From: Christiangramia flava JLT2011
Lineage (GTDB): Bacteria > Bacteroidota > Bacteroidia > Flavobacteriales > Flavobacteriaceae
Reading direction: 5' to 3'
DNA length: 64,000 bases
Assembly (NCBI RefSeq): GCF_001951155.1
Contig: NZ_CP016359.1
Span: 3,310,001 to 3,374,000 of the forward strand
A program made the translations under genes and the position numbers. The notes below the pieces were generated by a model. That model ran no database searches. It had not been told where the DNA came from and worked only from the letters and a program-made list of their open reading frames with translations. Positions within the stretch are counted from its first letter, which is position 1, and every line of letters starts with the position of its first letter. Positions 10,336-64,000 of the stretch are shown piece by piece.

Positions 10336-10344
10336 TTATTATTC

Positions 10345-11653: not shown

Positions 11654-11683
11654 TTTGGGTTCGCCTAAATTTTAAGATATTTG
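11654..11683 (+). promoter_or_regulatory. Putative hisS promoter
   Basis: TTTG at 11654-11657, an 18-base spacer and GATATTTG at 11676-11683, close to the Bacteroidota TTG / TAnnTTTG pair; 26 bases upstream of the hisS ATG. Confidence 0.4.
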
Positions 11684-11709
11684 CAAACCTGAAAAAGAAG
11701 TAAAGACCC

Positions 11710-15095: not shown

Positions 15096-15230
15096 AGTCT
15101 GATTTTTAAGATTGAAACTTCCGTTTACTCCCTTAAAATTAGGCAATAGGAAAAGGCTGGATGCTGGCTTTAAGAAAGTTTCACGTGTGACGGTTAGATT
15201 TTTGGCGTTTTATTAATAATTGCTGAAACC

Positions 15231-22093: not shown

Positions 22094-22101
22094 TAAACTA
22101 T

Positions 22102-22130
22102 AAAGCCGGAATGTGTATTCCGGCTTTTTA
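22102..22130 (+). terminator. Terminator of the TonB receptor gene
   Basis: Perfect 11-base stem AAAGCCGGAAT-GTGT-ATTCCGGCTTT followed by T residues. Confidence 0.9.
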
Positions 22131-22171
22131 TGCTTTTCATAGACTTATTGAGAAGTAATTATATGTTAAAA

Positions 22172-22204
22172 AATAAAAGCCGAAGTGAAAACTTCGGCTT
22201 TTTA
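22172..22204 (-). terminator. Original terminator of the disrupted tRNA gene
   Basis: Perfect 11-base stem AAAGCCGAAGT-GAAA-ACTTCGGCTTT; read on the minus strand it sits directly after the tRNA 3' end and ends in a T-run. It stayed on the chromosome side when the island integrated. Confidence 0.75.
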
Positions 22205-22209
22205 ATTCC

Positions 22210-22253
22210 TGTAGCGAGACCGAGATTTGAACTCGGGACCTCCGGGTTATGAA
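22210..22253 (-). other. Displaced tRNA 3' half (CAU anticodon) = left attachment site (attL) of the island
   Basis: On the minus strand, bases 22253 to 22210 read as an anticodon loop TTCATAA, the 3' anticodon stem CCCGG, variable loop, a proper T-arm (CCGAG-loop-CTCGG), the 3' acceptor strand TCTCGCT and the discriminator. The 5' half is missing: the bases 5' of the anticodon loop cannot pair with CCCGG. This is the scar left when a tyrosine recombinase integrates into a tRNA 3' end; the intact tRNA-Met (or CAU tRNA-Ile) should lie at the other end of the element, outside this window. Confidence 0.85.
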
Positions 22254-22357
22254 AATATTCTGCTAGAAGTCAAATCTATCTAAAACACCTGAAAATCAAT
22301 TAGTTAATGTTGTTTTGATAAATTTTGATATTATATAATATGGCCTAAAATCAACCG

Positions 22358-22390
22358 ATTCTGTACTTATTCTGTACTTATTCTGTACTA
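22358..22390 (+). repeat. Three tandem 11-bp repeats upstream of the integrase
   Basis: ATTCTGTACTT occurs at 22358-22368 and 22369-22379, followed by ATTCTGTACTA at 22380-22390. One helical turn per repeat, between attL and the integrase start, suggests arm-type integrase or excisionase binding sites, or integrase autoregulation. Confidence 0.8.
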
Positions 22391-22438
22391 GTTTTTAGGT
22401 GTAAATTATTATATTACAGGGTTTTAAATCCTAACTGT

Positions 22439-29276: not shown

Positions 29277-29306
29277 TTTGGTATCAAAAATCAAATTTTA
29301 TTGAAT

Positions 29307-47267: not shown

Positions 47268-50200
47268 TTTGTAGCTCGTTTTAATTGAAATTCCTGCTTC
47301 CAACTGAATAAAACTGGCACAACAAATAGCGTTACAAGTGCTATAAGCATTCCGCCAAATGAAGGGATTGCCATCGGAATCATTATATCACTCCCACGAC
47401 CTGTTGATGTCAATACAGGTAACAAAGCGAGAATAGTTGTTGCAGTTGTCATTAAACACGGACGGATACGCTTTTCTCCAGCTTCAACTACAGATGCCCT
47501 AATTTCCTGTTTTGTTTCTGGGGTATTTCTATCAAAGGTTTGGGTCAAATAAGTTGCCATAACCACACCATCATCAGTTGCAATACCGAATAGGGCAATA
47601 AAACCAACCCAAACGGCAACACTCAAGTTTATAGTGTGCATTTGGAACAGGTCTCGTAGGTTTTCACCAAAGAAGCTAAAGTTCAAAAACCAATCCTGTC
47701 CATAAAACCAAATCATTAGAAAGCCTCCTGCAAAAGCCACGGCAATACCTGTAAAAACCATAAGGGATGTTGCAACAGAACGGAACTGGAAATAAAGAAT
47801 GAGAAATATAATTAGCAATGCGAGTGGCACAACTACACCAAGTGTTTTTTCGGCCCTTAATTGGTTCTCATAGGTTCCTGTAAATTGATAGTTAATTCCT
47901 TTTGGCACAACAAGCTGTCCATTATCAATCTTCTCTTGTATGAGTGCTTGGGCGTTTTCTACCACATCTACCTCGGCATAACCATCCAACTTATCAAAGA
48001 GCACGTAACCTACTAAAAAAGTATCCTCACTTTTTATGATTTGTGGTCCTTGCTCATAACGAATGGTAACCAATTCACTTATGGGTACTGGGTTGCCCTT
48101 TTCTACCGGAACATAAATATCTTTTAAATCATTTGGATTTGCACGTAGCTCTCTTGGATAACGTACGCGTATTCCATATCGCTCCCTGCCTTCAACAGTT
48201 TGTGTAAGCACCATACCACCTATAGACACTTGTATCACTTGCTGTACCTGCTGTATGGAAATACCATAACGAGCAAGCTTGTCTCTATCGATATCCAATA
48301 AAAGGTAAGGTTTACCAACTATTCGGTCTGCAAAAACGGCTTCATCCTTAACACCGTCGGCTTGTTTTAATATATCCTCCAATTGCACTCCAAAGGCTTC
48401 TATCTCATTTAAATCTTGCCCTTTCACTTTGATACCCATTGGTGCTCGCATACCCGTTTGAAGCATTACCAATCGGGTTTCAATAGGTTGTAATTTAGGT
48501 GCTGAAGTAACTCCGGGAAGTTTAGTTACCTTTACAATCTCTTTCCAAATATCATCTGGCGATTCAATTTCTGGTCGCCAGTTTCTATAATACTCACCAT
48601 CGTCGTCTGGTATAAGTTGTCTATCAGTAATGTTAAAAGGGTCTTTTAATAAGGTGGCATCATACTTGCCTTCGTCTACTTCCAATTCAACATTTGGATT
48701 TGTAACCAAGCTACCATCCTTTAACATAAAGAGACCATCTTCATTAACTTTAAATCGTTGTCTTTCTCTTTTATCATTTAAAATGTATTCAGACTTGTAC
48801 TGAATTACATTTTCATACATTGACAACGGTGCTGGGTCTAAAGCCGATTCTGTGCGTCCTGATTTACCAACCACCGTTTCAATCTCTGGGATGCTAGCAA
48901 CGGCCATATCCAATTGTTGTAAAACACGCTTGTTCTCCTCAACCCCAGCGTGAGGCATAGAAGTTGGCATTAAGAGGAAAGAACCTTCATTAAGTGATGG
49001 CATAAATTCCTTACCCGTATTCCGCATTATCATAACACCGAAGATGACAATAGCAGTGGGTATGGCTAGAAACAAGAGTTTATTGCGTAACGCCCAATTT
49101 AATATGCGCACATAATAGCTCCTAAATAGCGTAAATATACCCAACAGGCCAAAGCATATCAGGCCTACAAATATTAAGTTCCAGAAAATGCTTCTATCTA
49201 CACCCAATGGTCTCCAATATTCCGCCAACAAGAATACAATGGCAAAGGCTGAAATAAATATGTTGATGATATTAGCTCTATCTGCCGATATTTTTTCTTT
49301 AATAGACAGTAAACCAACGATACCATATGCAACCAGTATAAGCCCAAGGGTATGTCCAAAAATTACTGCTAACAGACCAATTATTACTAAAGCAATATTG
49401 AGAATGTATCTAAAAGAAATTTTTACATTACGCTTTCTGAAAAAATAGGCTGCAAAAGGTGGTATAAGAAATAATGCCACTATAAGAGATGCTGTGAGTG
49501 CCGCTGTTTTTGTGAAGGCCAAAGGTCTAAATAACTTACCTTCAGCTCCTATCATAGTGAATACAGGAATAAAACTTATTATTGTGGTCATAACAGCAGT
49601 TAGAATAGCGCCAGAGACCTCGGCTGTGGCATTATATACAACTGTATTCATTGGTAGGTTCTGGTCATTTTCATCTATATGACGCAGTACATTTTCAGAT
49701 AGAATAACTCCCACATCTACCATTGTACCAATGGCGATGGCAATACCAGATAAGGCGACAATATTGGCATCTACATTAAACAACTTCATTGATATAAAAA
49801 CCATCAATACCGCCACAGGTAATAGTCCTGAAATCAATACAGAAGCTCTGAGGTTGAATACCATAATGATAATTACGAAAATGGTTATCAAAATTTCTAG
49901 AGTCAATGCTTCATCAAGTGTTCCTAATGTTTCCTGTATGAGTTCGGTTCTATCATAAAAAGGAACAATGGTCAACTGCGATGTCCTTCCATCGCTCAGA
50001 GTTTTAGAAGGTAAGCCTGAACTTAGTTCATTTATTTTCTCCTTAACATTATTAATAACCGCCATAGGGTTAGCGCCGTAGCGGGCTACTACAACACCAC
50101 CTACAACTTCAGCACCTTCTTTATCTAAAAGCCCTCTTCTTGTTGCAGGTCCGTGAGAGACATTGGCAATATCCTTTAAGCGTATAGAGGTAAAATCTTC

Positions 50201-51004
50201 TGAAGTAACTACTGCATTCTCTAGGTCTGAAATAGACTTAACATATCCTAAACCCCGGATTAGATATTCAGCTTGGTTTATTTCTAATGTTTGCGCACCT
50301 ACGTCTTGGTTACTTTGCTTAACAGCTTTAACGACTTGATTTAAGTCAATTTTATACTGCTTCATCAACTCTGGGTTGACATCCACTTGGTATTCTAAAA
50401 CGTAACCACCAATAGAGGCTACTTCTGAAACACCGCTTGCTGAGGACAGTGCATATTTCACATAAAAGTCCTGGATACTTCTTAATTCTTGTAAGTCCCA
50501 ACCGCCTGTTACATTTCCATTTTCATCACGACCCTCTAATGTGTACCAATAAATTTGCCCTAGACCTGTAGCATCCGGACCCAGTGCGGGATTCACTCCG
50601 TCGGGTAATAATCCAGCGGGCAACGAATTTAATTTTTCGAGAATACGGCTTCGACTCCAATAAAATTCTATGTCTTCTTCAAAAATGATATAAATACTGG
50701 AAAAACCGAACATCGAAGAACTCCGTATGGTCTTTACCCCAGGAATACCAAGAAGTGAAGTGGTAAGCGGATAGGTTATTTGGTCTTCAATATCTTGTGG
50801 CGAACGTCCATCCCATTTCGTAAATACAATTTGTTGGTTTTCGCCAATATCGGGAATGGCATCCACCGCTACAGGATTACGTGGTAAGGAACCAGTATTC
50901 CATTCAAAAGGTGCATTTACAATACCCCAAGCCACGAATAAGGCTAGTAACAGAACCGCTACTAGTTTATTTTCTATTAAAAATTTGATGCTTTTATTTA
51001 GCAT
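47264..51004 (-). CDS. CusA/CzcA-type heavy-metal RND efflux pump
   Basis: Inner-membrane proton-driven pump expelling Cu(I)/Ag(I) or divalent ions through an adaptor and TolC. 1246 residues, about 200 longer than E. coli CusA: an insert of extra hydrophobic helices follows the sixth helix (near residues 530-650), plus an acidic periplasmic insert (about 770-840). Seen: AVDAIPDIGENQ, GQIYWYTLEG and the membrane motif GIAIAIGTMVDVGVILSENV with the proton-relay acids. Methionines are present but the Cu(I)-specific triad was not verified, so the Cus or Czc subclass is inference. Confidence 0.95.
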   Translation of the reverse strand: MLNKSIKFLIENKLVAVLLLALFVAWGIVNAPFEWNTGSLPRNPVAVDAIPDIGENQQIVFTKWDGRSPQDIEDQITYPLTTSLLGIPGVKTIRSSSMFGFSSIYIIFEEDIEFYWSRSRILEKLNSLPAGLLPDGVNPALGPDATGLGQIYWYTLEGRDENGNVTGGWDLQELRSIQDFYVKYALSSASGVSEVASIGGYVLEYQVDVNPELMKQYKIDLNQVVKAVKQSNQDVGAQTLEINQAEYLIRGLGYVKSISDLENAVVTSEDFTSIRLKDIANVSHGPATRRGLLDKEGAEVVGGVVVARYGANPMAVINNVKEKINELSSGLPSKTLSDGRTSQLTIVPFYDRTELIQETLGTLDEALTLEILITIFVIIIMVFNLRASVLISGLLPVAVLMVFISMKLFNVDANIVALSGIAIAIGTMVDVGVILSENVLRHIDENDQNLPMNTVVYNATAEVSGAILTAVMTTIISFIPVFTMIGAEGKLFRPLAFTKTAALTASLIVALFLIPPFAAYFFRKRNVKISFRYILNIALVIIGLLAVIFGHTLGLILVAYGIVGLLSIKEKISADRANIINIFISAFAIVFLLAEYWRPLGVDRSIFWNLIFVGLICFGLLGIFTLFRSYYVRILNWALRNKLLFLAIPTAIVIFGVMIMRNTGKEFMPSLNEGSFLLMPTSMPHAGVEENKRVLQQLDMAVASIPEIETVVGKSGRTESALDPAPLSMYENVIQYKSEYILNDKRERQRFKVNEDGLFMLKDGSLVTNPNVELEVDEGKYDATLLKDPFNITDRQLIPDDDGEYYRNWRPEIESPDDIWKEIVKVTKLPGVTSAPKLQPIETRLVMLQTGMRAPMGIKVKGQDLNEIEAFGVQLEDILKQADGVKDEAVFADRIVGKPYLLLDIDRDKLARYGISIQQVQQVIQVSIGGMVLTQTVEGRERYGIRVRYPRELRANPNDLKDIYVPVEKGNPVPISELVTIRYEQGPQIIKSEDTFLVGYVLFDKLDGYAEVDVVENAQALIQEKIDNGQLVVPKGINYQFTGTYENQLRAEKTLGVVVPLALLIIFLILYFQFRSVATSLMVFTGIAVAFAGGFLMIWFYGQDWFLNFSFFGENLRDLFQMHTINLSVAVWVGFIALFGIATDDGVVMATYLTQTFDRNTPETKQEIRASVVEAGEKRIRPCLMTTATTILALLPVLTSTGRGSDIMIPMAIPSFGGMLIALVTLFVVPVLFSWKQEFQLKRATK

Positions 51005-52836: not shown

Positions 52837-53418
52837 ATGACACAACCAAAAGAATTTTGGGTTAAAAATATGGTGTGTAGTCGTTGCTTAAAAGTAATTA
52901 AGCAAGAACTACAAGAACTAGGAATAACGGTCCTTTGCCTAGAGCTAGGAAAGCTTTTAGTAGAAGCACCAGACCTAAGCAAGGCACAAATTAACCAAGA
53001 GGTTACCCAAGTGCTGCACGCAAATGGTTTTGAGATAGTAAAAAGTGAAGAAGATATGCTTGTTGAAAGAATAAAAATTTTTCTAATCGAACAACTTGAT
53101 GAGCTACCGCTAACGCTAAAAGTTAAGACCTCAGAACATTTATCATCAACCCTTCACCGAGATTACAAGGCATTGAGCAAACTGTTCTCATATAAGGAAA
53201 AGACCACCATTGAAAAGTACTTTATAAAATTAAAAATTGAAAAAGTCAAGGAACTCATACAGCTAAAACAGCATTCCTTCTCTGATATAGGGTACTTATT
53301 GGATTACAGCAGTGTAAATCACTTATCCAGACAATTTAAGGATGTGGTTGGATTGAGTATGACAGATTACAAAAACACAGAAAATTGGAAGCGAAATTAT
53401 TACGATGAAATTATGTAG
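52837..53418 (+). CDS. AraC-type regulator with N-terminal HMA-like metal domain, copy 2
   Basis: 193 residues from the ATG at 52837 (an in-frame TTG at 52735 would add 34 residues but looks unlikely). HMA-like domain at 1-70 with NMVCSRC (Cys14, Cys17); AraC double helix-turn-helix at about 90-185 (HSFSDIGYLLDYSSVNHLSRQFKD, GLSMTDYK). Same architecture as the regulator at 34.9 kb but clearly diverged, so the two control points of the island may respond separately. Located directly after the second HYC_CC_PP gene. Confidence 0.85.
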   Translation: MTQPKEFWVKNMVCSRCLKVIKQELQELGITVLCLELGKLLVEAPDLSKAQINQEVTQVLHANGFEIVKSEEDMLVERIKIFLIEQLDELPLTLKVKTSEHLSSTLHRDYKALSKLFSYKEKTTIEKYFIKLKIEKVKELIQLKQHSFSDIGYLLDYSSVNHLSRQFKDVVGLSMTDYKNTENWKRNYYDEIM

Positions 53419-53489: not shown

Positions 53490-54092
53490 ATGAAAACAAT
53501 CTTCCTCACATTATTAATTATCCCAATACTGGGAATTGGACAAACCATAGAAAACATTGACTTTGTATCCCCTTTTCACGATGGTCTTTCAGCAGTAAAA
53601 AAAGGAAATAACTGGGCATTTATTGACCAAAACGGCTCTATAATCATTGATTTTAGACAAGACTTGGTAAAGACCAAAACCGACAAAGGCTACTATCCTC
53701 TGTTCAGTAATGGAAAATGTATTATAGCGCAGAAAAAAGATGATATACTCCTTTATGGGTTTATTGACAAAAAAGGAAACATAAGTATCGAACCACAGTT
53801 TCTAAATGTCTTAAACTTTCAAGGTAACAAGACCTTGGCATTAATAGTACATAAAGAGACCATAGGCTTTAATGATATTTTTAAAAAAGATGTTGTTAAC
53901 TACCATTATTTTGAGGTGGTCATCGATGAGAACGGAAATTCTCTAGACCACCTTACCCAATTGGCTTTACATATTTCCCCAAAATACTCTAAAAGCAAAG
54001 AACCACCTGTTATCACATCTAAATTTATTTCTGATAATCTGATAGCAGTAAAAAGCGATGAAAATAAATGGAACTTAAGAAAAATCAAGTAG
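53490..54092 (+). CDS. Secreted WG-repeat-like protein
   Basis: 200 residues: signal peptide 1-18, then WG-type repeats (FHDGLSAVKKGNNWAFIDQNGSIIIDF; GFIDKKGNISIEPQF; VIDENGNSL). WG repeats form small beta units, probably for binding. Function not known. Follows the regulator after 70 bases on the same strand. Confidence 0.75.
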   Translation: MKTIFLTLLIIPILGIGQTIENIDFVSPFHDGLSAVKKGNNWAFIDQNGSIIIDFRQDLVKTKTDKGYYPLFSNGKCIIAQKKDDILLYGFIDKKGNISIEPQFLNVLNFQGNKTLALIVHKETIGFNDIFKKDVVNYHYFEVVIDENGNSLDHLTQLALHISPKYSKSKEPPVITSKFISDNLIAVKSDENKWNLRKIK

Positions 54093-54143: not shown

Positions 54144-54413
54144 ATGAAAAACAATCACTGGATATGGATGATTCTAGGCTGTGGCTTACCGCTTCTGTTC
54201 ATTTTTCTAACACCTTCTTTTGGTATAGGTGGAGGCTCATCCCTTTTCAACTTCATATTATTTATGTTCGCCATTCACCTGTTTATGCCTCACGGGTCTC
54301 ACGGCCACGGAGGACACAGACACAACAATGGAAACCATAATAATCACGAACATAATGAAAAGCAGTCTGATGATGGTTCAACAGAGAAAAGAAAAGGACA
54401 TCAACATCATTAA
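54144..54413 (+). CDS. His-rich small membrane protein (DUF2933-like)
   Basis: 89 residues: two hydrophobic stretches (5-25 and 35-50), then an extreme His/Gly/Asn tail (HGSHGHGGHRHNNGNHNNHE) that would bind metal ions such as copper, nickel or zinc. Head resembles DUF2933 proteins of metal islands. First of a run of five small genes. Confidence 0.7.
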   Translation: MKNNHWIWMILGCGLPLLFIFLTPSFGIGGGSSLFNFILFMFAIHLFMPHGSHGHGGHRHNNGNHNNHEHNEKQSDDGSTEKRKGHQHH

Positions 54414-54424: not shown

Positions 54425-54643
54425 ATGAAACAAAAATTTCAAATAAGCGGAATCAGTTGTGGCGGATGCGTTGCAAGGGTCAAGAAAACCTTGGAGAATC
54501 ATCCTAATATCGAAAAAGCAGAGATTTTTTTGGCACCAAAAGGTGCTACAATTATCACTATGAACGAAACGCTCTCGGTTGAAGACATACAAAAGCAACT
54601 TGATGAACTCAACGGATATACAATTTCAAAAATAAATCAATAA
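54425..54643 (+). CDS. CopZ-like HMA domain protein, second copy
   Basis: 72-residue single HMA domain with ISCGGCVARV (Cys12, Cys15), cytosolic. Metal chaperone by family. Related to the copy beside CopA (31.65 kb) in its CGGC site. No P-type ATPase accompanies it here. Confidence 0.9.
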   Translation: MKQKFQISGISCGGCVARVKKTLENHPNIEKAEIFLAPKGATIITMNETLSVEDIQKQLDELNGYTISKINQ

Positions 54644-54662: not shown

Positions 54663-54881
54663 ATGCATTTATACGACGGACACTTTGGGGGTATGCACCT
54701 AATATGGTGGATTATATGGATTATTTTATTGGCTTGGATATTTTTCATTCCAACAGATATACCATATCAAAAAACAAAAAAAGAAGATCCTTTAGACATT
54801 CTTAAGAAAAGATTTGCTGAAGGCTTCATTACAAAGGAGGAATATGAAGAATCAAAAAAGATTCTAAAATCAGATAATTAA
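54663..54881 (+). CDS. SHOCT-domain small membrane protein
   Basis: 72 residues: hydrophobic helix (11-28, LIWWIIWIILLAWIFF), then a C-terminal SHOCT motif, LKKRFAEGFITKEEYEESKKIL. SHOCT is a short domain used for oligomerisation. Common in metal-resistance gene strings. Confidence 0.85.
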   Translation: MHLYDGHFGGMHLIWWIIWIILLAWIFFIPTDIPYQKTKKEDPLDILKKRFAEGFITKEEYEESKKILKSDN

Positions 54882-54898: not shown

Positions 54899-55177
54899 AT
54901 GTACCGATTAAACGTAAAAAAACTCGGGTTTGCTTTTGGTCTAACCGGAGCATTAATCTATTTGGGCTGTATGATAGTGATGTCAACTGCAGGTAGGGAA
55001 GCCACAATCGACTTTTTCAACAGCCTTTTGCACGGATTGGACACTACAAGTATAATCAGAATGGATGTTCCACTGTGGGAAGCTGGTTTAGGAATCATAC
55101 AGACCTTCATACTGGGTTGGCTGGTTGGTGCCTGTATTGCGGCATTTTACAACGCACAACTTAAAATAAAAAAATAA
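54899..55177 (+). CDS. DUF5676-type membrane protein
   Basis: 92 residues with two membrane helices (about 10-32 and 65-85). The PLWEAGLGIIQTFILGWLVG-like second helix is typical of DUF5676, a family known from copper and mercury islands. Function unknown. Confidence 0.75.
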   Translation: MYRLNVKKLGFAFGLTGALIYLGCMIVMSTAGREATIDFFNSLLHGLDTTSIIRMDVPLWEAGLGIIQTFILGWLVGACIAAFYNAQLKIKK

Positions 55178-55193: not shown

Positions 55194-55901
55194 ATGCAAT
55201 ACGTCTGGTTTATATGGTCATTAATTATCCTGGCGCTTTGGGCAGTAATATATCTCTTCAAGAAAGATTCTAGAAAAGAAATGCTCAAGATGAGCCTGAT
55301 TACATTGCCTTTTGGCTTAACAGAACCATTGTTTATGCCAGAATATTGGATGCCACCTTCGCTTTTTGATTTGGCTGAAAAAACAAGGTTTGATATCGAA
55401 AGTCTCATTTTTTCTTTTGCAATCGGTGGTATAGGTGTGGTACTTTATAATCTTATTTTTAAACAAACCTTTCAAGAAATAACACATACAGAGCGAAATC
55501 ACAGAAGACATCGCTTGCATATATACATCTTATTTGTACCAGCAATCGTGTTTTTAATATTAGCACTATTTACATCATTAAACCATATTTATTGTGGTAC
55601 TATAGCGATGTTCCTAGGTGGTTTAGCAACATTATACTGTCGCCCAGATTTAAAAAGAAAGATATGGGTTGGGGGCATCTTGTTTACGGTATTATACTTC
55701 ATATACTTTGGAAGTATCCTTCCATTTTATCCGCAATATGTTGAGCTGTACTGGAACCTTGACAGCCTAACCCATATTCTGGTTCTGGGAATCCCCTTTG
55801 AAGAATTATTGTTCGCCTTCACCTTTGGAATGTACTGGTCTGGATTGTACGAACACATCTATTGGCGAAAACTTATACACTTAAATAAAGCACGTAATTA
55901 A
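55194..55901 (+). CDS. Lycopene-cyclase-domain membrane protein
   Basis: 235 residues with six to seven helices. Two internal repeats match the carotenoid cyclase (CrtYcd-type) pattern: LTEPLFMPEYWMPPSLFDL in the first half, GIPFEELLFAFTFG in the second. Known members close the rings of lycopene to beta-carotene. No phytoene synthase or desaturase is next to it here, so whether it acts on carotenoids is open. Co-oriented with small metal-associated genes. Confidence 0.75.
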   Translation: MQYVWFIWSLIILALWAVIYLFKKDSRKEMLKMSLITLPFGLTEPLFMPEYWMPPSLFDLAEKTRFDIESLIFSFAIGGIGVVLYNLIFKQTFQEITHTERNHRRHRLHIYILFVPAIVFLILALFTSLNHIYCGTIAMFLGGLATLYCRPDLKRKIWVGGILFTVLYFIYFGSILPFYPQYVELYWNLDSLTHILVLGIPFEELLFAFTFGMYWSGLYEHIYWRKLIHLNKARN

Positions 55902-55917: not shown

Positions 55918-56433
55918 ATGAAACAAATCCCTTTAAATAAAAAAAACAGTAAGATGCAAGTCATAGTCCGTAAAAACCCAGTGGAAAAGATTTATCGATT
56001 GTCCATAGGTCTTGTAATGCTTTTATTGCTCTCAATGTTGCTTCTATCTTGTGCCGACAAGAACAAAGAAGTTACTGAAAGTACACTACAGTTAAATACC
56101 GAAGTCTCTAAAAAGATAAAAGAAAACAATTCTGCTGCCCAAAACTATGAAATTGTCCCAAACGACAAAGTGTGTATGGTAAACGACAGGTTTATGGGCG
56201 TAACGCAAATACCTATTGAAGCCAACGGAACTACTTATTACGGTTGTTGTGAAAATTGTGTTGAAAAATTACAGAAAAATCTGGGTGATGTCCGTTTTGG
56301 CGTAAACCCTCTTAATGATTCAAAAGTAGATAAAGCTTCGGCAATTATTGTTCAGGATAAAAACAGCGGAAGTGTTTTTTACTTCATATCGAAAGAAGAT
56401 GCCCAAACATTTATAAACAAGAATAAGGCATAG
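55918..56433 (+). CDS. TRASH/MlpB-like metal-binding lipoprotein
   Basis: 171 residues: long head, hydrophobic helix and a lipobox-like LLLSC at Cys45, then a metal-binding domain with KVCMVNDRFMG and YYGCCENC. The pattern Cys-x(n)-CCxxC resembles TRASH-type metal domains. Likely a periplasmic copper or silver binder; family assignment is by pattern. Confidence 0.7.
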   Translation: MKQIPLNKKNSKMQVIVRKNPVEKIYRLSIGLVMLLLLSMLLLSCADKNKEVTESTLQLNTEVSKKIKENNSAAQNYEIVPNDKVCMVNDRFMGVTQIPIEANGTTYYGCCENCVEKLQKNLGDVRFGVNPLNDSKVDKASAIIVQDKNSGSVFYFISKEDAQTFINKNKA

Positions 56434-56462: not shown

Positions 56463-56924
56463 ATGAAAATTGTATTGGCCATAGATGGTTCAGATTTTAG
56501 TAAAGTAGCCATTAACGAGCTTAAGAAAATGACTTTATCCTCAAATAGTGAAATTCATATTATAAATGTTTATGAAGTTCCTAAAACAACCAGTCTGGGA
56601 TTGCATACTATGGGCGGCAAGATAGGAAATTACATAGAAGAAATTAAAAGTAACGCTCAAAAATTGGGAAACAAAATCGTTTCAGAGGCTTCCGATAAAA
56701 TCAAGGCCGAAAACAAAGCACTTACCATAACCACAAGCGTTGTTAGCGGACTACCCAAAAGTATTATTAATGAAAAAGCAGAAGATTGGGGTGCAGATTT
56801 AATTGTAGTAGGCTCTCAGGGTCTCGGTGCTTTTTCTCGCTTAGTATTGGGCTCTGTATCCCAATATTTGACCACAAATGCCAAATGTTCAGTACTGATT
56901 GCAAGAGATAGAAATAAAAAATGA
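56463..56924 (+). CDS. Universal stress protein (UspA family)
   Basis: 153-residue alpha/beta nucleotide-binding protein. Seen: IVLAIDGSDFSKVAIN at the start and the ATP-binding glycine motif GSQGLGAFSRLVLGSVSQYL near 120-140. Stress-induced regulator or chaperone-like protein by family. Its stop overlaps the NDH-2 start, so the two are coupled and open the metabolic block. Confidence 0.92.
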   Translation: MKIVLAIDGSDFSKVAINELKKMTLSSNSEIHIINVYEVPKTTSLGLHTMGGKIGNYIEEIKSNAQKLGNKIVSEASDKIKAENKALTITTSVVSGLPKSIINEKAEDWGADLIVVGSQGLGAFSRLVLGSVSQYLTTNAKCSVLIARDRNKK

Positions 56925-58276
56925 AAGAAAAGCAAACACATAGCATTAAATTAGAATCCACTTGTAAGATAACAGATGAGATATGTCTCCCCGATACTAA
57001 ATTACCTCGTGTGGTTATCGTTGGTGGTGGGTTTGCAGGTTTGGCATTGGTTGAGAAACTGAAACACAAAGAAGTTCAAGTGGTTTTACTCGATAAAAAT
57101 AACTTCCATCAGTTTCAGCCTTTATTGTATCAAGTGGCAACGAGTGCCCTGGAGCCTGACAGTATTGTATTTCCATTCAGAAAACAAATCAATGGCTATA
57201 AAAATGTTTTCTTTCGTTTGGCTGAAGTTGAGGAAATTCAACCTGATTCAAATACTATATTGACCAATAAGGGAAGTATTTCTTATGACTATTTAGTGTT
57301 GGCTACTGGCACGACCACCAATTTCTTTGGGATGGATTCTGTGGCCGAAAATAGTTTGGGGATGAAGGATATTCGCGATTCCCTCAACATCCGTCATATG
57401 ATGTTGCAAAATTTGGAACAGGCAGCTATTACTTGTGATGATGAAGAACGCGACGCGTTGACAAATTTTGTAATAGTAGGTGGTGGTCCAGCAGGCGTAG
57501 AAATGGCAGGAGCTTTGGCAGAGTTTTGCAAATACATCCTTCCCAAAGATTACCCAGAGTACCCTTCTTCCATTATGAATATTTATCTAATAGAAGCCAT
57601 TGATGAGTTGTTAAGTACAATGTCTGATAAAGCATCTTCGAAAACCCTCAAATATTTAGAGGATTTAAATGTAAAGGTATTATTAAATGAAGCTGTAAGC
57701 AATTATGATGGAAAGGAAGTCACTACCAAAAGTGATAAGACCATATTGGCTAAAAACCTTATCTGGACGGCTGGCGTAAAAGGACAATTCCCAAATGGTA
57801 TTGATGGAAAACACGTAGTCAGAGGCAACCGTATTAAAACCAATGCCAATTTAAAAGTAGAAGGCTACGAAAATATTTTTGCCATAGGTGATATCGCAGC
57901 ACTCATTTCCAAAGAAACCCCAAAAGGACATCCACAAGTAGCACAGACCGCTATTCAACAAGGTAAATACCTGGGCGATTCGATATTAAATATCATAAAT
58001 AACAAATCCATAAAACCTTTCAAATATAAAGATAAAGGTTCCTTAGCAACCGTAGGTAAACGCAAGGCAGTTGCCGATTTGGGCAAATTTAAATTTGCAG
58101 GCTATTTCGCCTGGTTGCTGTGGTCCGTTGTTCACTTGATGTCCATAAGTGGATTTAGAAATAGATTGATGGTTGGTTTTAATTGGGCGGTAAGTTATTT
58201 CACTTATGAAAAGAGCAACCGCCTGATTATTAGAAACTTTAAACCGAAATCTTCGATTAAAAACAGGGAAAAATAA
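56921..58276 (+). CDS. Type II NADH:quinone oxidoreductase (NDH-2)
   Basis: Single-subunit membrane-associated flavoenzyme that passes electrons from NADH to quinone without pumping protons and without Fe-S clusters. 451 residues: FAD-binding VVIVGGGFAGLALVEKL near residue 31, NAD-binding FVIVGGGPAGVEMAGAL near 185, FAIGDIAAL near 325, and an amphipathic end (YFAWLLWSVVHLMSISGFRNR) for membrane attachment. Redundant with the usual chromosomal complexes, so its presence on an island suggests a stress role. Confidence 0.9.
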   Translation: MKEKQTHSIKLESTCKITDEICLPDTKLPRVVIVGGGFAGLALVEKLKHKEVQVVLLDKNNFHQFQPLLYQVATSALEPDSIVFPFRKQINGYKNVFFRLAEVEEIQPDSNTILTNKGSISYDYLVLATGTTTNFFGMDSVAENSLGMKDIRDSLNIRHMMLQNLEQAAITCDDEERDALTNFVIVGGGPAGVEMAGALAEFCKYILPKDYPEYPSSIMNIYLIEAIDELLSTMSDKASSKTLKYLEDLNVKVLLNEAVSNYDGKEVTTKSDKTILAKNLIWTAGVKGQFPNGIDGKHVVRGNRIKTNANLKVEGYENIFAIGDIAALISKETPKGHPQVAQTAIQQGKYLGDSILNIINNKSIKPFKYKDKGSLATVGKRKAVADLGKFKFAGYFAWLLWSVVHLMSISGFRNRLMVGFNWAVSYFTYEKSNRLIIRNFKPKSSIKNREK

Positions 58277-58283
58277 TTTTGAA

Positions 58284-59639
58284 ATGAAAAACACCACAGA
58301 TAAAAATAATAAGCTTTCCTTATTAGGTTCCATATCTCTTGGTACAGGCGTAATGATTGGTGCTGGCATATTTGTCCTTATGGGGCAAATAGCAGAGTTG
58401 GTGGGTGATCTATTTCCCATTGCATTTATTGCAGGTGCTGTTGTGGTGGGTTTTAGCTCATATTCCTATGTCAAGTTTTCAAATGCTTTTCCATCGTCTG
58501 GAGGTGTGGTTAAATTCCTTAACAAATCCTATGGACCTGGAACAACAACAGGGTTTTATTCTTTGCTGATGTACGTATCAATGGTAGTTTCCGAAAGTCT
58601 GGTGGCGGGCACTTTTGGAGCATATACGTTGAGACTATTTCCCGAGTCCTATGCAGGTTATGCCTCTACCCTGGGTGTTGGGCTAATTGTTGTTGCTTAT
58701 ATAGTGAACATCCTGGGCAATAAGGTTATTGGTGCCACCGCGACATTTACCGCTATTATAAAGGTAGTGGGAATAGCAATTTTAGCTATTGCCGGCCTTG
58801 CAATTTCAGGTTTTGCCGATATTACGGGAAACTATATTCCCAAAAATACTGAGACATTACCACAAGGCTTCGGATTTGTGGCCGCTTTGGCGTTATCTAT
58901 CCTTGCTTATAAAGGCTTTACCACTATCACGAACCAAGGGGCCGATATTAAAAACCCGCATAAAAATCTTGGTAGGTCTATCGTGTTTTCCATACTTATC
59001 TGCACACTGATATATGTAGCCCTGGCATTAGCTGTTGCGGGAGGTTTAAGCATTCCTGAAATAATCGAAGCTAAAGATTATGCCCTTGCAGCCGCCGCAA
59101 AACCTGTTTTTGGGGAATGGGGTTCCTGGATTACCATTGGCATTGCCATTATTGCCACGGTTTCTGGGGTCATTGCCAGTATCTTTTCCTCTTCACGCTT
59201 GTTGGCAATGCTCAGCAATATGAAACAGGTGCCTTCTTTAACCAAACTTGGTAGCTTAAAAAATCCAGCACTAATATTCACGTCTTCCCTCGCCATTTTA
59301 CTGACCGTGCTTTTCGATTTGACAAGGATAGCATCCATTGGGGCTATTTTTTACCTTATTATGGATATCGCTATCCATTGGGGGCTGTTCCGTCACCTTA
59401 AAAACAAAGTGGTTTTTCAGCCTATCATCCCATTAATAGCCATCGTATTGGACATTGCGGTATTGGCAGCTTTTCTTTATATAAAATATCTGAACGATCC
59501 TTTGGTGCTTATCGTAGCAGCGATTGGGATTGTTCTAATACTTGTGGCGGAACGCCTTTTTATGATTTCACATACAGACGATGAAGGTAATATGCCAATG
59601 GGAATGAAGAATACAAGTGACAAAAACAATAAAACATAA
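58284..59639 (+). CDS. APC-family amino acid/polyamine permease
   Basis: 451 residues with about 12 helices. Seen: the APC start GTGVMIGAGIFVLMGQIAEL (helix 1 with GAGIF) and GAVVVGFSSYSYVKFSNAFPSSGG. Secondary transporter; substrate not determinable. Ends with a short polar tail. Confidence 0.9.
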   Translation: MKNTTDKNNKLSLLGSISLGTGVMIGAGIFVLMGQIAELVGDLFPIAFIAGAVVVGFSSYSYVKFSNAFPSSGGVVKFLNKSYGPGTTTGFYSLLMYVSMVVSESLVAGTFGAYTLRLFPESYAGYASTLGVGLIVVAYIVNILGNKVIGATATFTAIIKVVGIAILAIAGLAISGFADITGNYIPKNTETLPQGFGFVAALALSILAYKGFTTITNQGADIKNPHKNLGRSIVFSILICTLIYVALALAVAGGLSIPEIIEAKDYALAAAAKPVFGEWGSWITIGIAIIATVSGVIASIFSSSRLLAMLSNMKQVPSLTKLGSLKNPALIFTSSLAILLTVLFDLTRIASIGAIFYLIMDIAIHWGLFRHLKNKVVFQPIIPLIAIVLDIAVLAAFLYIKYLNDPLVLIVAAIGIVLILVAERLFMISHTDDEGNMPMGMKNTSDKNNKT

Positions 59640-59658
59640 TTAATTAAAAACAATTTAT

Positions 59659-60672
59659 ATGAAAAATGTAGCAGTTATAGGTTACGGAGTCATTGGAAAA
59701 AGGGTGGCAGATGCCATCAACTTACAAAACGATATGAAGCTTTCGGGAGTATGTGATATCATTAGCGACTGGCGAATTCAAAATGCCGTAAGAAAGAATT
59801 ACAACATATACGCAGCAACTCAAGATGCAGCTGATAATATGAAATCTGAAGGGATTTCTGTTAAAGGCAATATGCAGGAACTTTTAAAGAAATCAGACCT
59901 TGTAGTGGACTGTACGCCTAAAAAGATTGCTGCTCAAAATGTAGCGATTTATAAAGAACAGAATATAAAATTTATTCTACACGGTGGCGAAAAACACGAA
60001 ACCACAGGGCATTCCTTTAGTGCAGAAAATAATTACAAATCAGCTCTAAACTTGAATGCGACAAGAGTAGTTTCCTGTAATACTACGTCTATTTTAAGAA
60101 CCTTGACCGCTTTAAAAAGAGCCGATTTATTGGATTATGCCAGAGGTACACTTTTAAGAAGAGCTACAGACCCTTGGGAAAGTCATTTGGGTGGTATTAT
60201 GAATACGATGGTTCCCGAAAAAGATATCCCAAGCCATCAAGGTCCGGATGCTAAAAGTGTTGACCCAGAACTGGATGTCATCACCGCAGCGGTAAAAGTA
60301 CCCGAAACATTGAGCCATATGCACTACTGGAATGTGAAATTGAAAAAGCAGGCGACAAAGCAAGAAGTGCTAAATGCTTTCAAAACGTCCAGCCGTATTA
60401 AATTGATTCAATATGACCAAGGTCTGGTTTCTAACAACACCATTAAGGAAATGTTCTTGGATATGGGAAGGCCTTGGGGCGATATGTACGAAGTAGCACT
60501 ATGGGAAGATATGCTGAAGGTACAGGGAGACGAACTCTTTTATGCCTACGTGGTCGATAACCAAGCTATTGTAATCCCGGAAACAATTGATGCTATTAGG
60601 GCTTTAACTGGAATTGAAACAGATGGTACAAAATCCATAGCCAAAACAAATGAAAGTTTAGGAATCCATTAA
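59659..60672 (+). CDS. Type II (archaeal-like) glyceraldehyde-3-phosphate dehydrogenase
   Basis: Oxidises glyceraldehyde-3-phosphate to 1,3-bisphosphoglycerate. 337 residues of the type II class common in archaea and rare in bacteria: Rossmann motif [15 protein letters not shown] at 5-19, catalytic Cys140 in [26 protein letters not shown], and [14 protein letters not shown]. It differs from the normal bacterial GapA, which core metabolism must supply elsewhere, so it is a second, unrelated enzyme for the same step. Confidence 0.93.
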
Positions 60673-60683
60673 ATACTATCAAA

Positions 60684-61745
60684 ATGAAAACAGACAAGAA
60701 TATAGTAGAACTTTTAGGAGAAAAAGCAGACTTCTATTTAGAACACGTTTGTGAAAAAATAACAAAGGATGAATTGCAAGTGCCAAGCAAAAATAGTTTA
60801 GAAAAAGTATTTGGCAGTAGCAACAGAAATCCGCAGGTGCTTCGAAGTCTTTCACAATTGTACAACAACGGAAATCTGGGAGGCACGGGATATTTAAGCA
60901 TTCTTCCTGTAGACCAAGGCATTGAGCATAGCGCGGCCTTTTCATTCTATAAAAACCCAGATTATTTCGACCCAGAGAACATTATAAAACTCGCCCTTGA
61001 GGCCGGTTGTAATGGGGTGGCTTCCACGTTTGGAGTTTTGGGTCTAAATGCCAGAAAGTACGCTCATAAAATACCTTTTATTGTGAAGATTAACCACAAT
61101 GAACTGCTAACCTACCCAAATAAATATGACCAAACATTATTTGGAAAGGTAAAAGATGCTTGGAATATGGGAGCGGTTGCCATTGGTGCAACCATCTATT
61201 TTGGCTCAAAAGAAAGCAATAGGCAGATTAAAGAAATTTCAGAGGCTTTTGAAGAAGCTCATAGTCTGGGTATGGCAACCATCTTATGGTGCTATACGCG
61301 TAACAAAGCTTTTAAAACAGAAAAAGAAGATTATCACGCTGCTGCTGACATAACTGGTCAGGCAAATCATTTAGGTGTCACCATACAGGCCGATATCATC
61401 AAACAAAAATTGCCAATAAACAATTTTGGTTTTAAGAATATTGATTTTGGCAAATACAATGCTGAAATGTATGAAACCCTCACTACAGAACACCCAATTG
61501 ATTTATGCAGGTTGCAAGTGGCAAATTGTTATATGGGTAAAATAGGACTGATAAATTCTGGCGGTGGTTCTAAAGGGAAGTCCGATTTAGTTGATGCTAT
61601 AACTACTGCCGTCATCAATAAAAGGGCTGGTGGCTCTGGGCTGATAATGGGAAGAAAAGCATTTCAAAAGCCTTTTAGCAAAGGCGTGAAAGTATTACAA
61701 TCTGTTCAGGAAGTTTATTTGGACGATAAAATTAGTATAGCATAA
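60684..61745 (+). CDS. Class I fructose-bisphosphate aldolase (DhnA-type)
   Basis: Cleaves fructose-1,6-bisphosphate by a lysine Schiff base, with no metal cofactor. 353 residues: [18 protein letters not shown] (DhnA/FbaB-like), [25 protein letters not shown], and the phosphate-binding end ([29 protein letters not shown]). Long N-terminal extension relative to E. coli DhnA. Most Bacteroidota use the metal-dependent class II enzyme; the lysine residue itself was not assigned. Confidence 0.92.
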
Positions 61746-61753
61746 TCAACAGA

Positions 61754-63094
61754 ATGTTTGATACAGAGATAAAATCATTAAAATCACTTAACCACTACCT
61801 CCTTAAACTGGTAGAAAGCCGTCTATGGCTTAAAGTAATCATTGCCTTATTTTTAGGTGTTGGATTTGGTCTGCTATTGAGTCCACAAAATGGATGGATT
61901 TCTAAAGAAAAAGCAGATATCGCGGGGAATTGGCTGGCATTGCCTGGTGTACTATTTCTGAAACTGGTTCAAATGATTATGATCCCGTTGATTGTGGCTT
62001 CCATCATCACAGGAATCGCAAGCAACGATAAGGAAAGTCTAAAAAAACTGGGCGGTGGCGTTTTACTGTATTTTTTGGGCACAACAATAGTTTCGGTTAG
62101 CATTGGTACGATACTATCCCAAATTTTTAGACCGGGTCGTTTTCTTCATCAACAAGCACTAAAAGAGCATAATGAAATTACGGCAGTTTCAACTGATGAA
62201 CCCGAGCTTTCCTTCGGAGTTGAAACGATTCCTGATGCCATCTCAAACCTGCTTCCTGAAAATCCATTGGCATCTATGGTAAGTGGTGAAATGTTAAGTA
62301 TCGTGATTTTCACAATCATTATTGGTGTAGCTGTGCTATCACTTGAAAATGCTTTACTGCGCCCAGTGAAGCTGCTTCTAAGTGCCATTCAGGAAGTCTG
62401 TATGACAGTAGTAAAATGGTCAATGCTTCTAGTGCCTATTGCCGTTTTTGGTCTTATGGCACAGCTCACCTCTAGCGTTGGTTTGAGTTCTCTATCTGGC
62501 CTCACCTACTATGTGGGTGTCGTCTTGCTCGGTCTGTTATTCTTAGTGATTTTCTATTTAGGGCTAATTGTGCTTCTTGGAAAATCAAACCCTATGCATT
62601 TCCTGAAAAAAATAAGGGATGTTCAGCTATTGGCTTTTTCAACCACAAGCTCTGCCGCTGTGATGCCACTTTCTCTTCAAACAGCCGAAGAAAAACTAAA
62701 GGTGGACAAGACCATTAGCAATTTTATCATTCCCATTGGCGCAACCGTCAATATGGATGGTACTGCACTTTATCAAACGATAACAACCCTTTTTATAGCC
62801 CAAGCCTATGGACTGGAAATGAGTTTACTCAATATTATTGTGGTCATTGTAACTATCGTTGCTGCTTCAATCGGCACACCTGCCATTCCCGGAGGTGGTG
62901 TGGTGATACTCGCTTCTGTTTTGGGAAGTGTTGGTATCCCAGCCGAAGGCATCATCATTATTATTGGTGTAGAAAGATTGTTGGGAATGTTCAGGACTGC
63001 TGTAAACGTAACGGGTGACCTTACAGCTTGTATGGTTTTTAATAGGTTGTATGGTATAAAAAACATTGAAATTCTTAAAAAAGAAGCTTTATAA
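61754..63094 (+). CDS. Dicarboxylate/amino acid:cation symporter (SDF family)
   Basis: 446 residues, about eight helices with two re-entrant loops. Seen: STTSSAAVMPLSL and TVNMDGTALYQTI and AIPGGGVVILASVLGSVGIPAEG, the DAACS hairpin motifs. Imports C4-dicarboxylates or acidic amino acids with Na+ or H+. Carbon source and glycolysis enzymes around it suggest a metabolic role. Confidence 0.9.
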   Translation: MFDTEIKSLKSLNHYLLKLVESRLWLKVIIALFLGVGFGLLLSPQNGWISKEKADIAGNWLALPGVLFLKLVQMIMIPLIVASIITGIASNDKESLKKLGGGVLLYFLGTTIVSVSIGTILSQIFRPGRFLHQQALKEHNEITAVSTDEPELSFGVETIPDAISNLLPENPLASMVSGEMLSIVIFTIIIGVAVLSLENALLRPVKLLLSAIQEVCMTVVKWSMLLVPIAVFGLMAQLTSSVGLSSLSGLTYYVGVVLLGLLFLVIFYLGLIVLLGKSNPMHFLKKIRDVQLLAFSTTSSAAVMPLSLQTAEEKLKVDKTISNFIIPIGATVNMDGTALYQTITTLFIAQAYGLEMSLLNIIVVIVTIVAASIGTPAIPGGGVVILASVLGSVGIPAEGIIIIIGVERLLGMFRTAVNVTGDLTACMVFNRLYGIKNIEILKKEAL

Positions 63095-63096
63095 CT

Positions 63097-64000
63097 ATGG
63101 ATAGTACTATAAAACATATAGGTGTATTTACCTCTGGAGGTGATAGTCCAGGGATGAATTCAGCCTTGTACGCCATTGCAAAAACGGCTGAAGCAACTGG
63201 TATAAAAGTTAGTGGTTTTAGAAAAGGATATGAAGGATTGATAGACGGTGACTTGGTTCAATTTAAATCACACGAATTACAAAAACTGACCCAAAAGGGT
63301 GGCACAATTCTAAAGACCGCACGAAGCAAACGTTTTCTCGAACTGGAAGGTCGAAAAAAAGCCCTGCAAACCCTAAATGCAAACAAAATAGATGCCCTGA
63401 TTGCCATTGGTGGCGATGGCACATTTAAAGGACTACTTACTTTTTCAGAAATATGCGACATTCCGTTTATCGGCATTCCTGGTACTATAGATAATGATAT
63501 TTCAGGAACAGATTATACCCTTGGTTTTGATTCCGCAGTAAATACAGCCATTGAGAATATTGATAAAATAAAGGACACTGCGGAATCTCACAATCGGGTA
63601 TTCATTGTGGAAGTAATGGGCAGGGATTCTGGCTACATCGCCATTCATTCAGGACTTACCACAGGAGCAGATGCCATTTTAATTCCCGAGAGTGGAAAGG
63701 ACTTTATTTATCTATTGGATAAGGTTAAAAATTACGATAGCGAAGATGCTTTTCTTGTCGTGGTTTCAGAAGGCGATGAAATAGGTGCCGAACTTGTTTC
63801 TTCAAAAATAAAGGAAGTCAACCCCAATGTCGATTTACGAATTACAAAACTTGGGCACGTACAGCGTGGTGGAAATCCTTCTGCTTTAGATAGGATGTTG
63901 GGTATTAGGCTTGGGGTGGAAGCCGTAAAATCACTTTTACAAAGTAAAAAGAATGTAATGGTCGGGATTTTAAACAATCAATTGCACTTAACCCCTTTTA
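63097..64000 (+). CDS. pfkA: 6-phosphofructokinase (3' end cut by window edge)
   Basis: Phosphorylates fructose-6-phosphate. Start ATG at 63097, two bases after the symporter stop; open to the window edge (301 codons seen). Seen: FTSGGDSPGMN near residues 10-20, IGGDGTFKGL, the catalytic GTIDNDI, VEVMGRDSGYIA, and HVQRGGNPSALDRMLG. ATP-type signatures (GGDGT and PGTIDND) indicate the PfkA class. With the aldolase and GAPDH it covers three consecutive glycolytic steps, missing only triose isomerase. Confidence 0.94.
   Translation, partial: MDSTIKHIGVFTSGGDSPGMNSALYAIAKTAEATGIKVSGFRKGYEGLIDGDLVQFKSHELQKLTQKGGTILKTARSKRFLELEGRKKALQTLNANKIDALIAIGGDGTFKGLLTFSEICDIPFIGIPGTIDNDISGTDYTLGFDSAVNTAIENIDKIKDTAESHNRVFIVEVMGRDSGYIAIHSGLTTGADAILIPESGKDFIYLLDKVKNYDSEDAFLVVVSEGDEIGAELVSSKIKEVNPNVDLRITKLGHVQRGGNPSALDRMLGIRLGVEAVKSLLQSKKNVMVGILNNQLHLTPF

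What the first reader, a model, noticed from the sequence alone, without database searches (positions are those of the whole stretch)
56463..64000. A candidate metal-tolerant glycolysis/respiration backup on a copper island
Seen: Usp, NDH-2, APC permease, type II GAPDH, class I aldolase, symporter and PfkA follow directly after copper genes on one strand, with 2-20 base spacing and one overlap. Known: the usual bacterial GapA is a recognised copper-sensitive enzyme, class II aldolase needs a displaceable metal ion, and copper destroys Fe-S clusters. Each island enzyme is an alternative form without the sensitive feature (type II GAPDH, Schiff-base aldolase, single-subunit NDH-2). Inference: the island carries spare central metabolism that keeps running under copper or silver load. 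I know no described system of this kind.
Basis: partly seen in the sequence, partly recalled or inferred. Interest (0 to 1): 0.82.

Follow-up and report, generated by a model that had tools for sequence, protein, structure and literature searches.

The report
Spare glycolysis genes in copper islands
Mobile copper- and silver-resistance islands in marine bacteria carry their own second set of sugar-burning and nucleotide-making enzymes, including stand-ins for two enzymes that copper is known to poison, which points to a way of surviving metal by replacing the damaged machinery as well as pumping the metal out.

Summary
Usp, NDH-2, APC permease, type II GAPDH, class I aldolase, symporter and PfkA lie in one tight array. 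It starts with a predicted metal-sensing HMA-AraC regulator and a CopZ-like chaperone, runs 11 kb past the window (D-LDH, Usp, AMP phosphorylase, PRPP synthetase and others) and reaches a copper-translocating P-type ATPase. The metal link is not chance: all 12 GAPDH-II loci found in 395 order genomes lie among copper genes; strictly defined metal genes occur in 17 of 27 GAPDH-II 20-kb windows and 0 of 25 controls; 71 of the 80 closest named loci have a copper-type pump or oxidase within 25 kb, the other nine being cut by contig ends. It recurs on plasmids of three more phyla (8 of 14 examined; 4 of 14 without), and once beside mercury genes. Chromosomal GAPDH, PFK, class II aldolase, NDH-2 and PRPP synthetase exist, so these are spare. 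But both published copper targets, GAPDH and PRPP synthetase, are duplicated by unrelated or divergent forms. The function, a metabolic bypass under metal, is inferred.

The parts
52837..53418 (+). HMA-AraC regulator: N-terminal HMA-like fold with MxCxxC, C-terminal AraC DNA-binding domain (longer TTG start possible at 52735)
   Evidence: HTH_18; M12, C14, C17 invariant in 25 sequences; AF2 mean pLDDT 88; fold matches to AraC domains and, more weakly, to copper chaperones
53490..54092 (+). WG-repeat protein
54144..54413 (+). His-rich 89-aa membrane protein (no Pfam hit)
54425..54643 (+). HMA metallochaperone (CopZ/Atx1-like, GISCGGC)
   Evidence: at 50% identity or more in 66 of 80 related loci
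54663..54881 (+). SHOCT-domain protein
54899..55177 (+). DUF5676 membrane protein
   Evidence: 71 of 80 related loci
55194..55901 (+). lycopene-cyclase-domain membrane protein
55918..56433 (+). lipoprotein with paired cysteines (YHS-like by eye; no family over cut-off)
56463..56924 (+). universal stress protein
56921..58276 (+). type II NADH dehydrogenase (NDH-2)
   Evidence: chromosomal sibling
58284..59639 (+). APC amino-acid permease
59659..60672 (+). type II GAPDH, catalytic Cys140 kept
60684..61745 (+). class I (Schiff-base type) fructose-bisphosphate aldolase
61754..63094 (+). SDF dicarboxylate/glutamate symporter
63097..64000 (+). ATP-dependent 6-phosphofructokinase (ends 68 bp past the window). 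The array continues in L002: LDH 1072-2067, Usp 2086-2916, ATP-cone nuclease 2919-3761, beta-CASP 4129-5505, AMP phosphorylase 5534-7036, PRPP synthetase 7047-7940, hypothetical 7937-8581, copper P-type ATPase 8900-11002, MFS 11003-12241
47264..51004 (-). CusA/CzcA family RND pump, divergent from the array
   Evidence: TIGR00914, 777 bits, cut-off 701
46050..47303 (-). CusC-type outer membrane factor
   Evidence: named from sequence and position
43684..46053 (-). multicopper oxidase
   Evidence: copper_res_A, 418 bits, under its cut-off of 479
35684..37486 (-). CusB-type adaptor with DUF3347 and HMBD
31885..34143 (-). copper-translocating P-type ATPase (CopA type)
   Evidence: TIGR01511, 616 bits, cut-off 397
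26985..29294 (-). multicopper oxidase
   Evidence: copper_res_A, 379 bits, under its cut-off of 479
22439..23770 (+). tyrosine recombinase at the left end of the island
   Evidence: named from sequence by eye

Best explanation
This is a horizontally spread copper/silver resistance island with a metabolic arm. A predicted metal-binding HMA-AraC regulator controls the array (inferred). Pumps, multicopper oxidases and the HMA chaperone lower free Cu(I)/Ag(I). When the cytosol is nevertheless loaded, GAPDH-II, fed by the island's PFK and class I aldolase, carries the GAPDH step that Cu(I)/Ag(I) blocks in GapA. NDH-2 (no Fe-S cluster) and D-lactate dehydrogenase reoxidise the NADH. A divergent PRPP synthetase, with AMP phosphorylase recycling AMP, covers the PRPP step that Cu(I) also blocks. 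In effect it is target replacement for a metal poison, with GAPDH-II as its core gene. Shown: gene content, linkage, recurrence and spare status. Inferred: metal induction, lower metal sensitivity and the physiological role.
For: Linkage: 12 of 12 GAPDH-II loci in the order lie among Cus, MCO or copper P-ATPase genes. All 11 GAPDH-II genomes fall among the 35 of 395 with a match to the island's P-ATPase at E<=1e-150 (hypergeometric 5e-13). Strict test in 20-kb windows: 17 of 27 GAPDH-II, 0 of 25 controls (p=4e-7). Named genomes: 71 of 80 loci have a copper-type pump or MCO within 25 kb: 44 inside the fetched flanks, 26 more by the P-ATPase orthologue on the same contig, and L141, which lies on the contig read. 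Other phyla: 8 of 14 plasmid loci examined. One locus beside MerA-, MerT- and MerR-type genes. Regulator with HMA-like N-terminus and AraC C-terminus. Targets: GapA inhibited by Cu(I) and Ag(I) in S. aureus (PMC6350627, one section read); Prs inhibited by Cu(I), and more prs protects (PMC10249872, abstract and two sections read). Both steps are duplicated on the island by unrelated or very divergent enzymes.
Against: GAPDH-II keeps the catalytic cysteine and the island enzymes are not generally poorer in cysteine, so lower copper sensitivity is not evident from sequence. PfkA and NDH-2 are ordinary forms. Extra gapA did not raise copper tolerance in S. aureus (stated as data not shown, PMC6350627). 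4 of 14 plasmid loci show no metal pump within 10 kb. Aldolase, PFK, LDH and PRPP synthetase are missing from many loci. The HMA chaperone is found in 0 of 15 loci outside the order. No shared operator was found. No expression data.
Confidence: 0.6

Rival explanations
1. A general low-energy or low-oxygen survival module. Usp, PFK, aldolase, GAPDH-II, D-LDH, NDH-2, AMP phosphorylase and (in other phyla) phosphoketolase, acetate kinase and glucan phosphorylase keep substrate-level ATP supply going when respiration stops, from any cause. It shares islands with metal genes because both are stress cargo.
For: D-LDH and Usp genes in the array. Plasmid loci with phosphoketolase, acetate kinase, glucan phosphorylase, enolase, PEP synthase or pyruvate:ferredoxin oxidoreductase beside GAPDH-II, some with no metal pump within 10 kb.
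Against: 0 of 25 control windows against 17 of 27 and the tight Bacteroidota linkage, including an HMA chaperone inside the array in 66 of 80 loci, call for a specific tie to metal. No excess of FNR-type sites in the window (2 matches, 2.96 expected, neither upstream of the array).
Confidence: 0.3
2. Hitchhiking: metabolic genes captured on a mobile element with metal genes, maintained by linkage and transfer, without a joint function.
For: Patchy distribution (11 of 395 genomes), mosaic identities between genera (LDH and DUF302 100%, regulator 76% between the window genome and G138), variable gene sets.
Against: The same genes stay together through rearranged orders, lie in one close-packed array, and GAPDH-II is found with metal genes again in other phyla.
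Confidence: 0.1

Closest known systems
Cus/Sil and Pco copper-silver resistance islands (for example CHASRI of enterobacteria; recalled)
   Same: RND pump, P-type ATPases and multicopper oxidases on an island with an integrase
   Different: as recalled, those islands carry no glycolytic or PRPP genes; here much of the array is central metabolism
Copper inhibition of GapA and Prs in Staphylococcus aureus (PMC6350627, PMC10249872)
   Same: the same two steps, GAPDH and PRPP synthesis, are duplicated here
   Different: those papers concern the ordinary enzymes; no replacement enzymes on an island are described in the sections I read
Target-replacement drug resistance (for example acquired insensitive dihydrofolate reductases; recalled)
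   Same: a mobile element would supply a substitute for the poisoned enzyme
   Different: the poison is a metal ion, several steps are covered, and insensitivity is not yet shown
Archaeal AMP phosphorylase (4ga5, from T. kodakarensis as recalled) and archaeal type II GAPDH (2czc, 1cf2, 1b7g)
   Same: homologous enzymes
   Different: here in bacteria, in a metal island

Membership tests
Type II glyceraldehyde-3-phosphate dehydrogenase | score over the NF003251 / TIGR01546 curated cut-offs | tested here: met
   449 and 326 bits against cut-offs 185 and 232.9
Type II glyceraldehyde-3-phosphate dehydrogenase | catalytic cysteine in the SCNTT motif (motif recalled) | tested here: met
   Cys140 invariant in 11 of 11 and aligned with SCNTT of two archaeal structures
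Class I fructose-bisphosphate aldolase, DhnA type | score over NF006707 cut-off; lysine at the Schiff-base position of the T. tenax enzyme (position recalled) | tested here: met
   633 bits, cut-off 327; Lys240 aligns with Lys177 of 1ojx
Copper/silver resistance island | RND pump, copper P-type ATPase, multicopper oxidase and metal chaperone genes together | tested here: met
   (the multicopper oxidases score below their family cut-offs)
Copper/silver resistance island | raises copper or silver tolerance | not testable with these tools
   needs deletion and growth assays
Metal-insensitive replacement of central metabolism | separate chromosomal enzymes for the same steps | tested here: met
   (LDH, AMP phosphorylase and the transporters were not checked)
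Metal-insensitive replacement of central metabolism | island forms lack the metal-binding residues of the sensitive forms | tested here: inconclusive
   catalytic Cys kept; second active-site Cys of the main GapA (SCTTNC) absent (SCNTTS), but also absent from the two other chromosomal GAPDHs; cysteine content not generally lower
HMA-type metal-sensing regulator | HMA fold with MxCxxC joined to a DNA-binding domain | tested here: met
   by structure prediction and weak fold matches (E 0.015 to 0.14 to copper chaperones); Pfam HMA not hit
Locus of heat resistance / stress-tolerance islands | sHSP, ClpK, FtsH and YfdX gene set (recalled) | not tested
   not searched in the window; FtsH and YfdX seen beside two plasmid GAPDH-II genes

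The most novel reading that the evidence does not exclude
Mobile target replacement against thiol-loving metals. Across at least four phyla, type II GAPDH travels with copper, silver and mercury resistance genes as a replacement for the poisoned GapA step. In Flavobacteriia it has grown into a metal-controlled second glycolytic and PRPP pathway inside the resistance operon.
Probability: 0.45. Interest if true: 0.88.

Novelty: new variant of a known kind. Interest (0 to 1): 0.78.

Why it matters
Which enzymes copper and silver poison in cells, and whether that is what limits growth, is a long-standing question. If evolution has repeatedly packed stand-ins for GAPDH and PRPP synthetase into copper islands, those steps are likely to be limiting targets in nature. 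The islands then supply ready-made pairs of sensitive and possibly insensitive enzymes with which to test this. It would also add a type of metal resistance, replacing the target, to export, oxidation and sequestration. GAPDH-II would be a simple marker for such islands in genome surveys.

Tried and rejected
Tried: shared operator motif in the island's intergenic regions: only AT-rich dyads, best count 6 against a shuffled maximum of 5; not taken as a signal. FNR-like and Bacteroidetes-type promoter patterns: no excess. Exact direct repeats of 13 to 30 bases between 21901-22440 and 78001-83000 as attachment sites: none. Lower cysteine content as the basis of insensitivity: rejected. A first, lenient count of metal genes in the 80 named loci (57 of 80) included small and weak matches; 18 of the 57 rested only on those. 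I replaced it by a firmer rule (30% identity, 100 bits) and by looking further out on the contigs.

Literature: ten full-text searches listed no paper that, by title and start of abstract, describes this gene set. The last matched 453 papers, of which 15 were listed. Three of those, on metal-resistance islands (PMC6316836, PMC8478169, PMC4781885), were searched for terms and had no occurrence of glyceraldehyde, aldolase, universal stress, phosphofructokinase or glycoly in the main text, nor of a sixth term (thymidine phosphorylase in the first, phosphoketolase in the other two). Supplements and most subscription papers were not seen.

Their 25-kb reach is wider than the 20-kb control windows. 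Plasmid contexts were read for 16 of 37 records (14 at 54% identity or more, 2 at 31-34%), and the PLSDB gene table is incomplete. The phylum test fetched 15 of 15 loci from genomes not already in the order set (for G678 one of two gene fragments). Five of the 15 had no strict hit: L179, L181 and L182 were cut at 10-12 kb by contig ends, L178 has an ArsP-type permease but no copper gene, L180 has mercury genes. The order set scored 7 of 12 by the strict 20-kb test and 12 of 12 in contexts of 25-40 kb (83 kb for the window genome). The control windows were fixed offsets on the same contigs, not random draws. The search for the three small proteins was run without composition correction (controls 0 of 25).
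Full report
What is there. The window is positions 3310001-3374000 of a 4.01-Mb single-contig genome; the named carriers of its nearest relatives are mostly Flavobacteriia (taxonomy recalled). From about 22.4 kb a lower-GC island begins (0.37 against 0.43 for 1-22 kb) with a tyrosine recombinase (by eye), a copper P-type ATPase, a CusB-type adaptor, a CusA/CzcA-family pump and multicopper oxidases that score below their family cut-offs. At 56463-64000 lie Usp, NDH-2, APC permease, type II GAPDH, class I aldolase, SDF symporter and PfkA.

The array is longer than the finding. On the same strand upstream are an AraC-type regulator, a WG-repeat protein, a His-rich small protein, an HMA metallochaperone with GISCGGC, SHOCT, DUF5676, a lycopene-cyclase-domain protein and a lipoprotein. 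Beyond the window end (L002) it runs on through D-2-hydroxyacid dehydrogenase, a double Usp, an ATP-cone/Mrr nuclease, a beta-CASP MBL protein, AMP phosphorylase (closest solved relative 4ga5), PRPP synthetase, a hypothetical gene, a copper-translocating P-type ATPase (TIGR01511, 616 bits, cut-off 397) and an MFS gene. From DUF5676 to MFS all gaps are 29 bp or less, or overlaps, except 367 and 318 bp. More metal genes follow: DUF3347, DUF305, a multicopper oxidase, a second CusA/CzcA-family pump (1147 bits) and a heavy-metal P-type ATPase, with CopA-, CusB- and CDF-type genes named by eye.

The copies are spare. The genome has three other GAPDH-family genes, two other PFKs, a class II aldolase, a second NDH-2 and a second PRPP synthetase. 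LDH, AMP phosphorylase and the transporters were not checked for second copies.

The link to metal genes in Bacteroidota. In the order, 11 of 395 genomes have a GAPDH-II over the curated cut-off, in 12 loci. All 12 lie among Cus, multicopper oxidase or copper P-ATPase genes in contexts of 25-40 kb (83 kb for the window genome), with gene orders that differ between genomes. A match to the island's P-ATPase at E<=1e-150 occurs in 35 of 395 order genomes (the handles agree) and includes all 11 (probability 5e-13 under random placement among genomes). At 84% identity or more, 8 of 10 carriers of that pump have GAPDH-II; G350 and G164 do not. In the phylum sample 18 of 395 genomes have GAPDH-II. 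The 15 not already in the order set and 25 control windows on the same contigs were fetched. With a strict rule (30% identity and 50% coverage to a Cop, Cus, MCO or Znt protein within 20 kb) the order gives 7 of 12, the phylum 10 of 15 and the controls 0 of 25; pooled 17 of 27 against 0 of 25, p=4e-7. The loci are related by descent and transfer, so the p-values overstate independence.

Negatives followed up. Of the five phylum loci without a strict hit, L180 has MerA-type (HMA plus pyridine nucleotide-disulphide oxidoreductase), MerT-HMA and MerR-type genes 4-7 kb from GAPDH-II. L178 has an ArsP-type permease, PfkB and a glucan phosphorylase. L179, L181 and L182 are cut by contig ends; L179 shows nearly the same run of ORF lengths as the L180 mer genes, but was not scanned.

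Named genomes. A scan with 11 aligned GAPDH-II proteins gave 525 encoded relatives, of which the best 80 were returned. Most are marine Flavobacteriia; others are Marinicella (Gammaproteobacteria), Sphingobacterium, Roseivirga and Membranihabitans (taxonomy recalled). In the fetched flanks (10 kb or less), 76 of 80 have the aldolase, 66 NDH-2, 51 PFK and 39 LDH. A copper-type pump or multicopper oxidase at 30% identity and 100 bits or more is inside those flanks in 44 of 80. L141 lies on the contig G218:C8, where one search shows the CusA-type pump about 16 kb away. That makes 71 of 80. In the other nine (L076, L086, L097, L106, L114, L115, L118, L129, L136) the contig ends within 15 kb downstream of GAPDH-II (ranges). 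The HMA chaperone occurs at 50% identity or more in 66 of 80, in 5 of 12 order loci (three more at 31%), in 0 of 15 phylum loci and in 0 of 25 controls.

Other phyla. GAPDH-II relatives occur on 37 plasmid records. Of 14 examined at 54% identity or more, 8 have a heavy-metal P-ATPase and/or a multicopper oxidase in the region: Hoeflea, Paracoccus, Methylocystis, Meiothermus, Mycolicibacterium, Rhodococcus, Corynebacterium comes and Pseudarthrobacter. Two are ambiguous: Pontibacter with an RND system and Phenylobacterium with a P-ATPase of unstated ion. Four show none within 10 kb: Methylophaga (only an HMA protein), Croceicoccus, Indioceanicola and Acidovorax. Regions were 10 kb each side, 15 kb. 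The neighbours in these phyla are again carbon-metabolism genes: phosphoketolase in three by name and, in two more, a product labelled xylulose 5-phosphate 3-epimerase that I take for one by its size; aldolase, PFK, glucan phosphorylase, enolase, and PRPP synthetase with AMP phosphorylase and MBL. Two distant paralogues (31-34%) lie in unrelated clusters without metal genes.

Regulator. The regulator at the head of the array has invariant Met12, Cys14 and Cys17 in 25 sequences. Its predicted structure (mean pLDDT 88) has a beta-alpha-beta-beta-alpha N-terminus and an AraC-like helical C-terminus. Foldseek matches AraC domains (two at E<=0.001) and, at E 0.015 to 0.14, copper chaperones and metal-binding domains (2l3m, 3cjk, 2gcf, 6ff1). 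Copper or silver sensing is therefore likely but inferred, and so is its control of the array.

How it probably works. In S. aureus, Cu(I) and Ag(I) inhibit GAPDH activity of GapA (PMC6350627; one section read) and Cu(I) inhibits PRPP synthetase, while more prs protects (PMC10249872; abstract and two sections read). The island carries an unrelated-sequence GAPDH and a PRPP synthetase only 21% identical to the chromosomal one, plus enzymes before these steps and two NADH outlets. The simplest reading is that pumps and oxidases lower the metal while the metabolic arm bypasses the two poisoned steps. Against an easy version of this: GAPDH-II keeps the catalytic cysteine, cysteine content is not generally reduced, PfkA and NDH-2 are ordinary, and extra gapA did not help S. 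aureus. One small difference is that the main chromosomal GapA has SCTTNC where GAPDH-II has SCNTTS, but the two other chromosomal GAPDHs also lack the second cysteine. What AMP phosphorylase does here is unresolved; recycling of AMP to a ribose phosphate is my inference from its family.

Rivals. A general energy-survival module explains the LDH, phosphoketolase and Usp genes and the four plasmid loci without metal pumps. Hitchhiking explains the mosaic identities. Neither easily explains the chaperone inside the array, the 0 of 25 controls, or recurrence in several phyla. I put the metal-bypass reading at 0.6.

Novelty. Ten full-text searches of the held library listed no description of this set. 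Copper islands are known; the metabolic arm as a recurrent part of them is, as far as these searches show, not described. I file it as a new variant of a known kind until insensitivity is measured.

Noticed in passing
L180:14542-17566: A divergent GAPDH-II locus lies next to MerR-type, MerT-HMA and HMA-MerA-type genes, linking GAPDH-II to mercury as well as copper.
   Followed up: partly
window:54144-54881: Relatives of the His-rich 89-aa protein and the SHOCT protein occur within the fetched window around GAPDH-II in 12 and 8 of 15 loci outside the order and in 0 of 25 controls; functions unknown.
   Followed up: partly
L145, L147, L178, L180, L211, L217: An isoprenylcysteine-carboxylmethyltransferase-like membrane protein is a recurrent neighbour of GAPDH-II in several phyla, on plasmids often with DUF2933.
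   Followed up: no
window:34855-35421: A second HMA-AraC-type regulator (34% identical) beside the copper P-ATPase and CusB-type genes.
   Followed up: partly
window:35684-37486: CusB-type adaptor carrying a C-terminal DUF3347 domain and an N-terminal heavy-metal-binding domain.
   Followed up: no
L052/L053 against the window: Between two genera the island is mosaic: LDH and DUF302 100% identical, ATP-cone 80%, regulator 76%, suggesting recent transfer and recombination of parts.
   Followed up: no
window:25977-26402: An SDR-like fragment near the integrase resembles (by eye) the C-terminus of the SDR at 14106-15146; possible trace of insertion or duplication.
   Followed up: no
L139 and L140: Paenimyroides and Sphingobacterium, different families (recalled), share nearly the same GAPDH-II copper locus by gene order and panel identities.
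   Followed up: no
L218, L219: Distant GAPDH-II paralogues (31-34% identity) lie near prs genes in Bradyrhizobium and Streptomyces plasmid clusters without metal genes, perhaps biosynthetic pathways.
   Followed up: no
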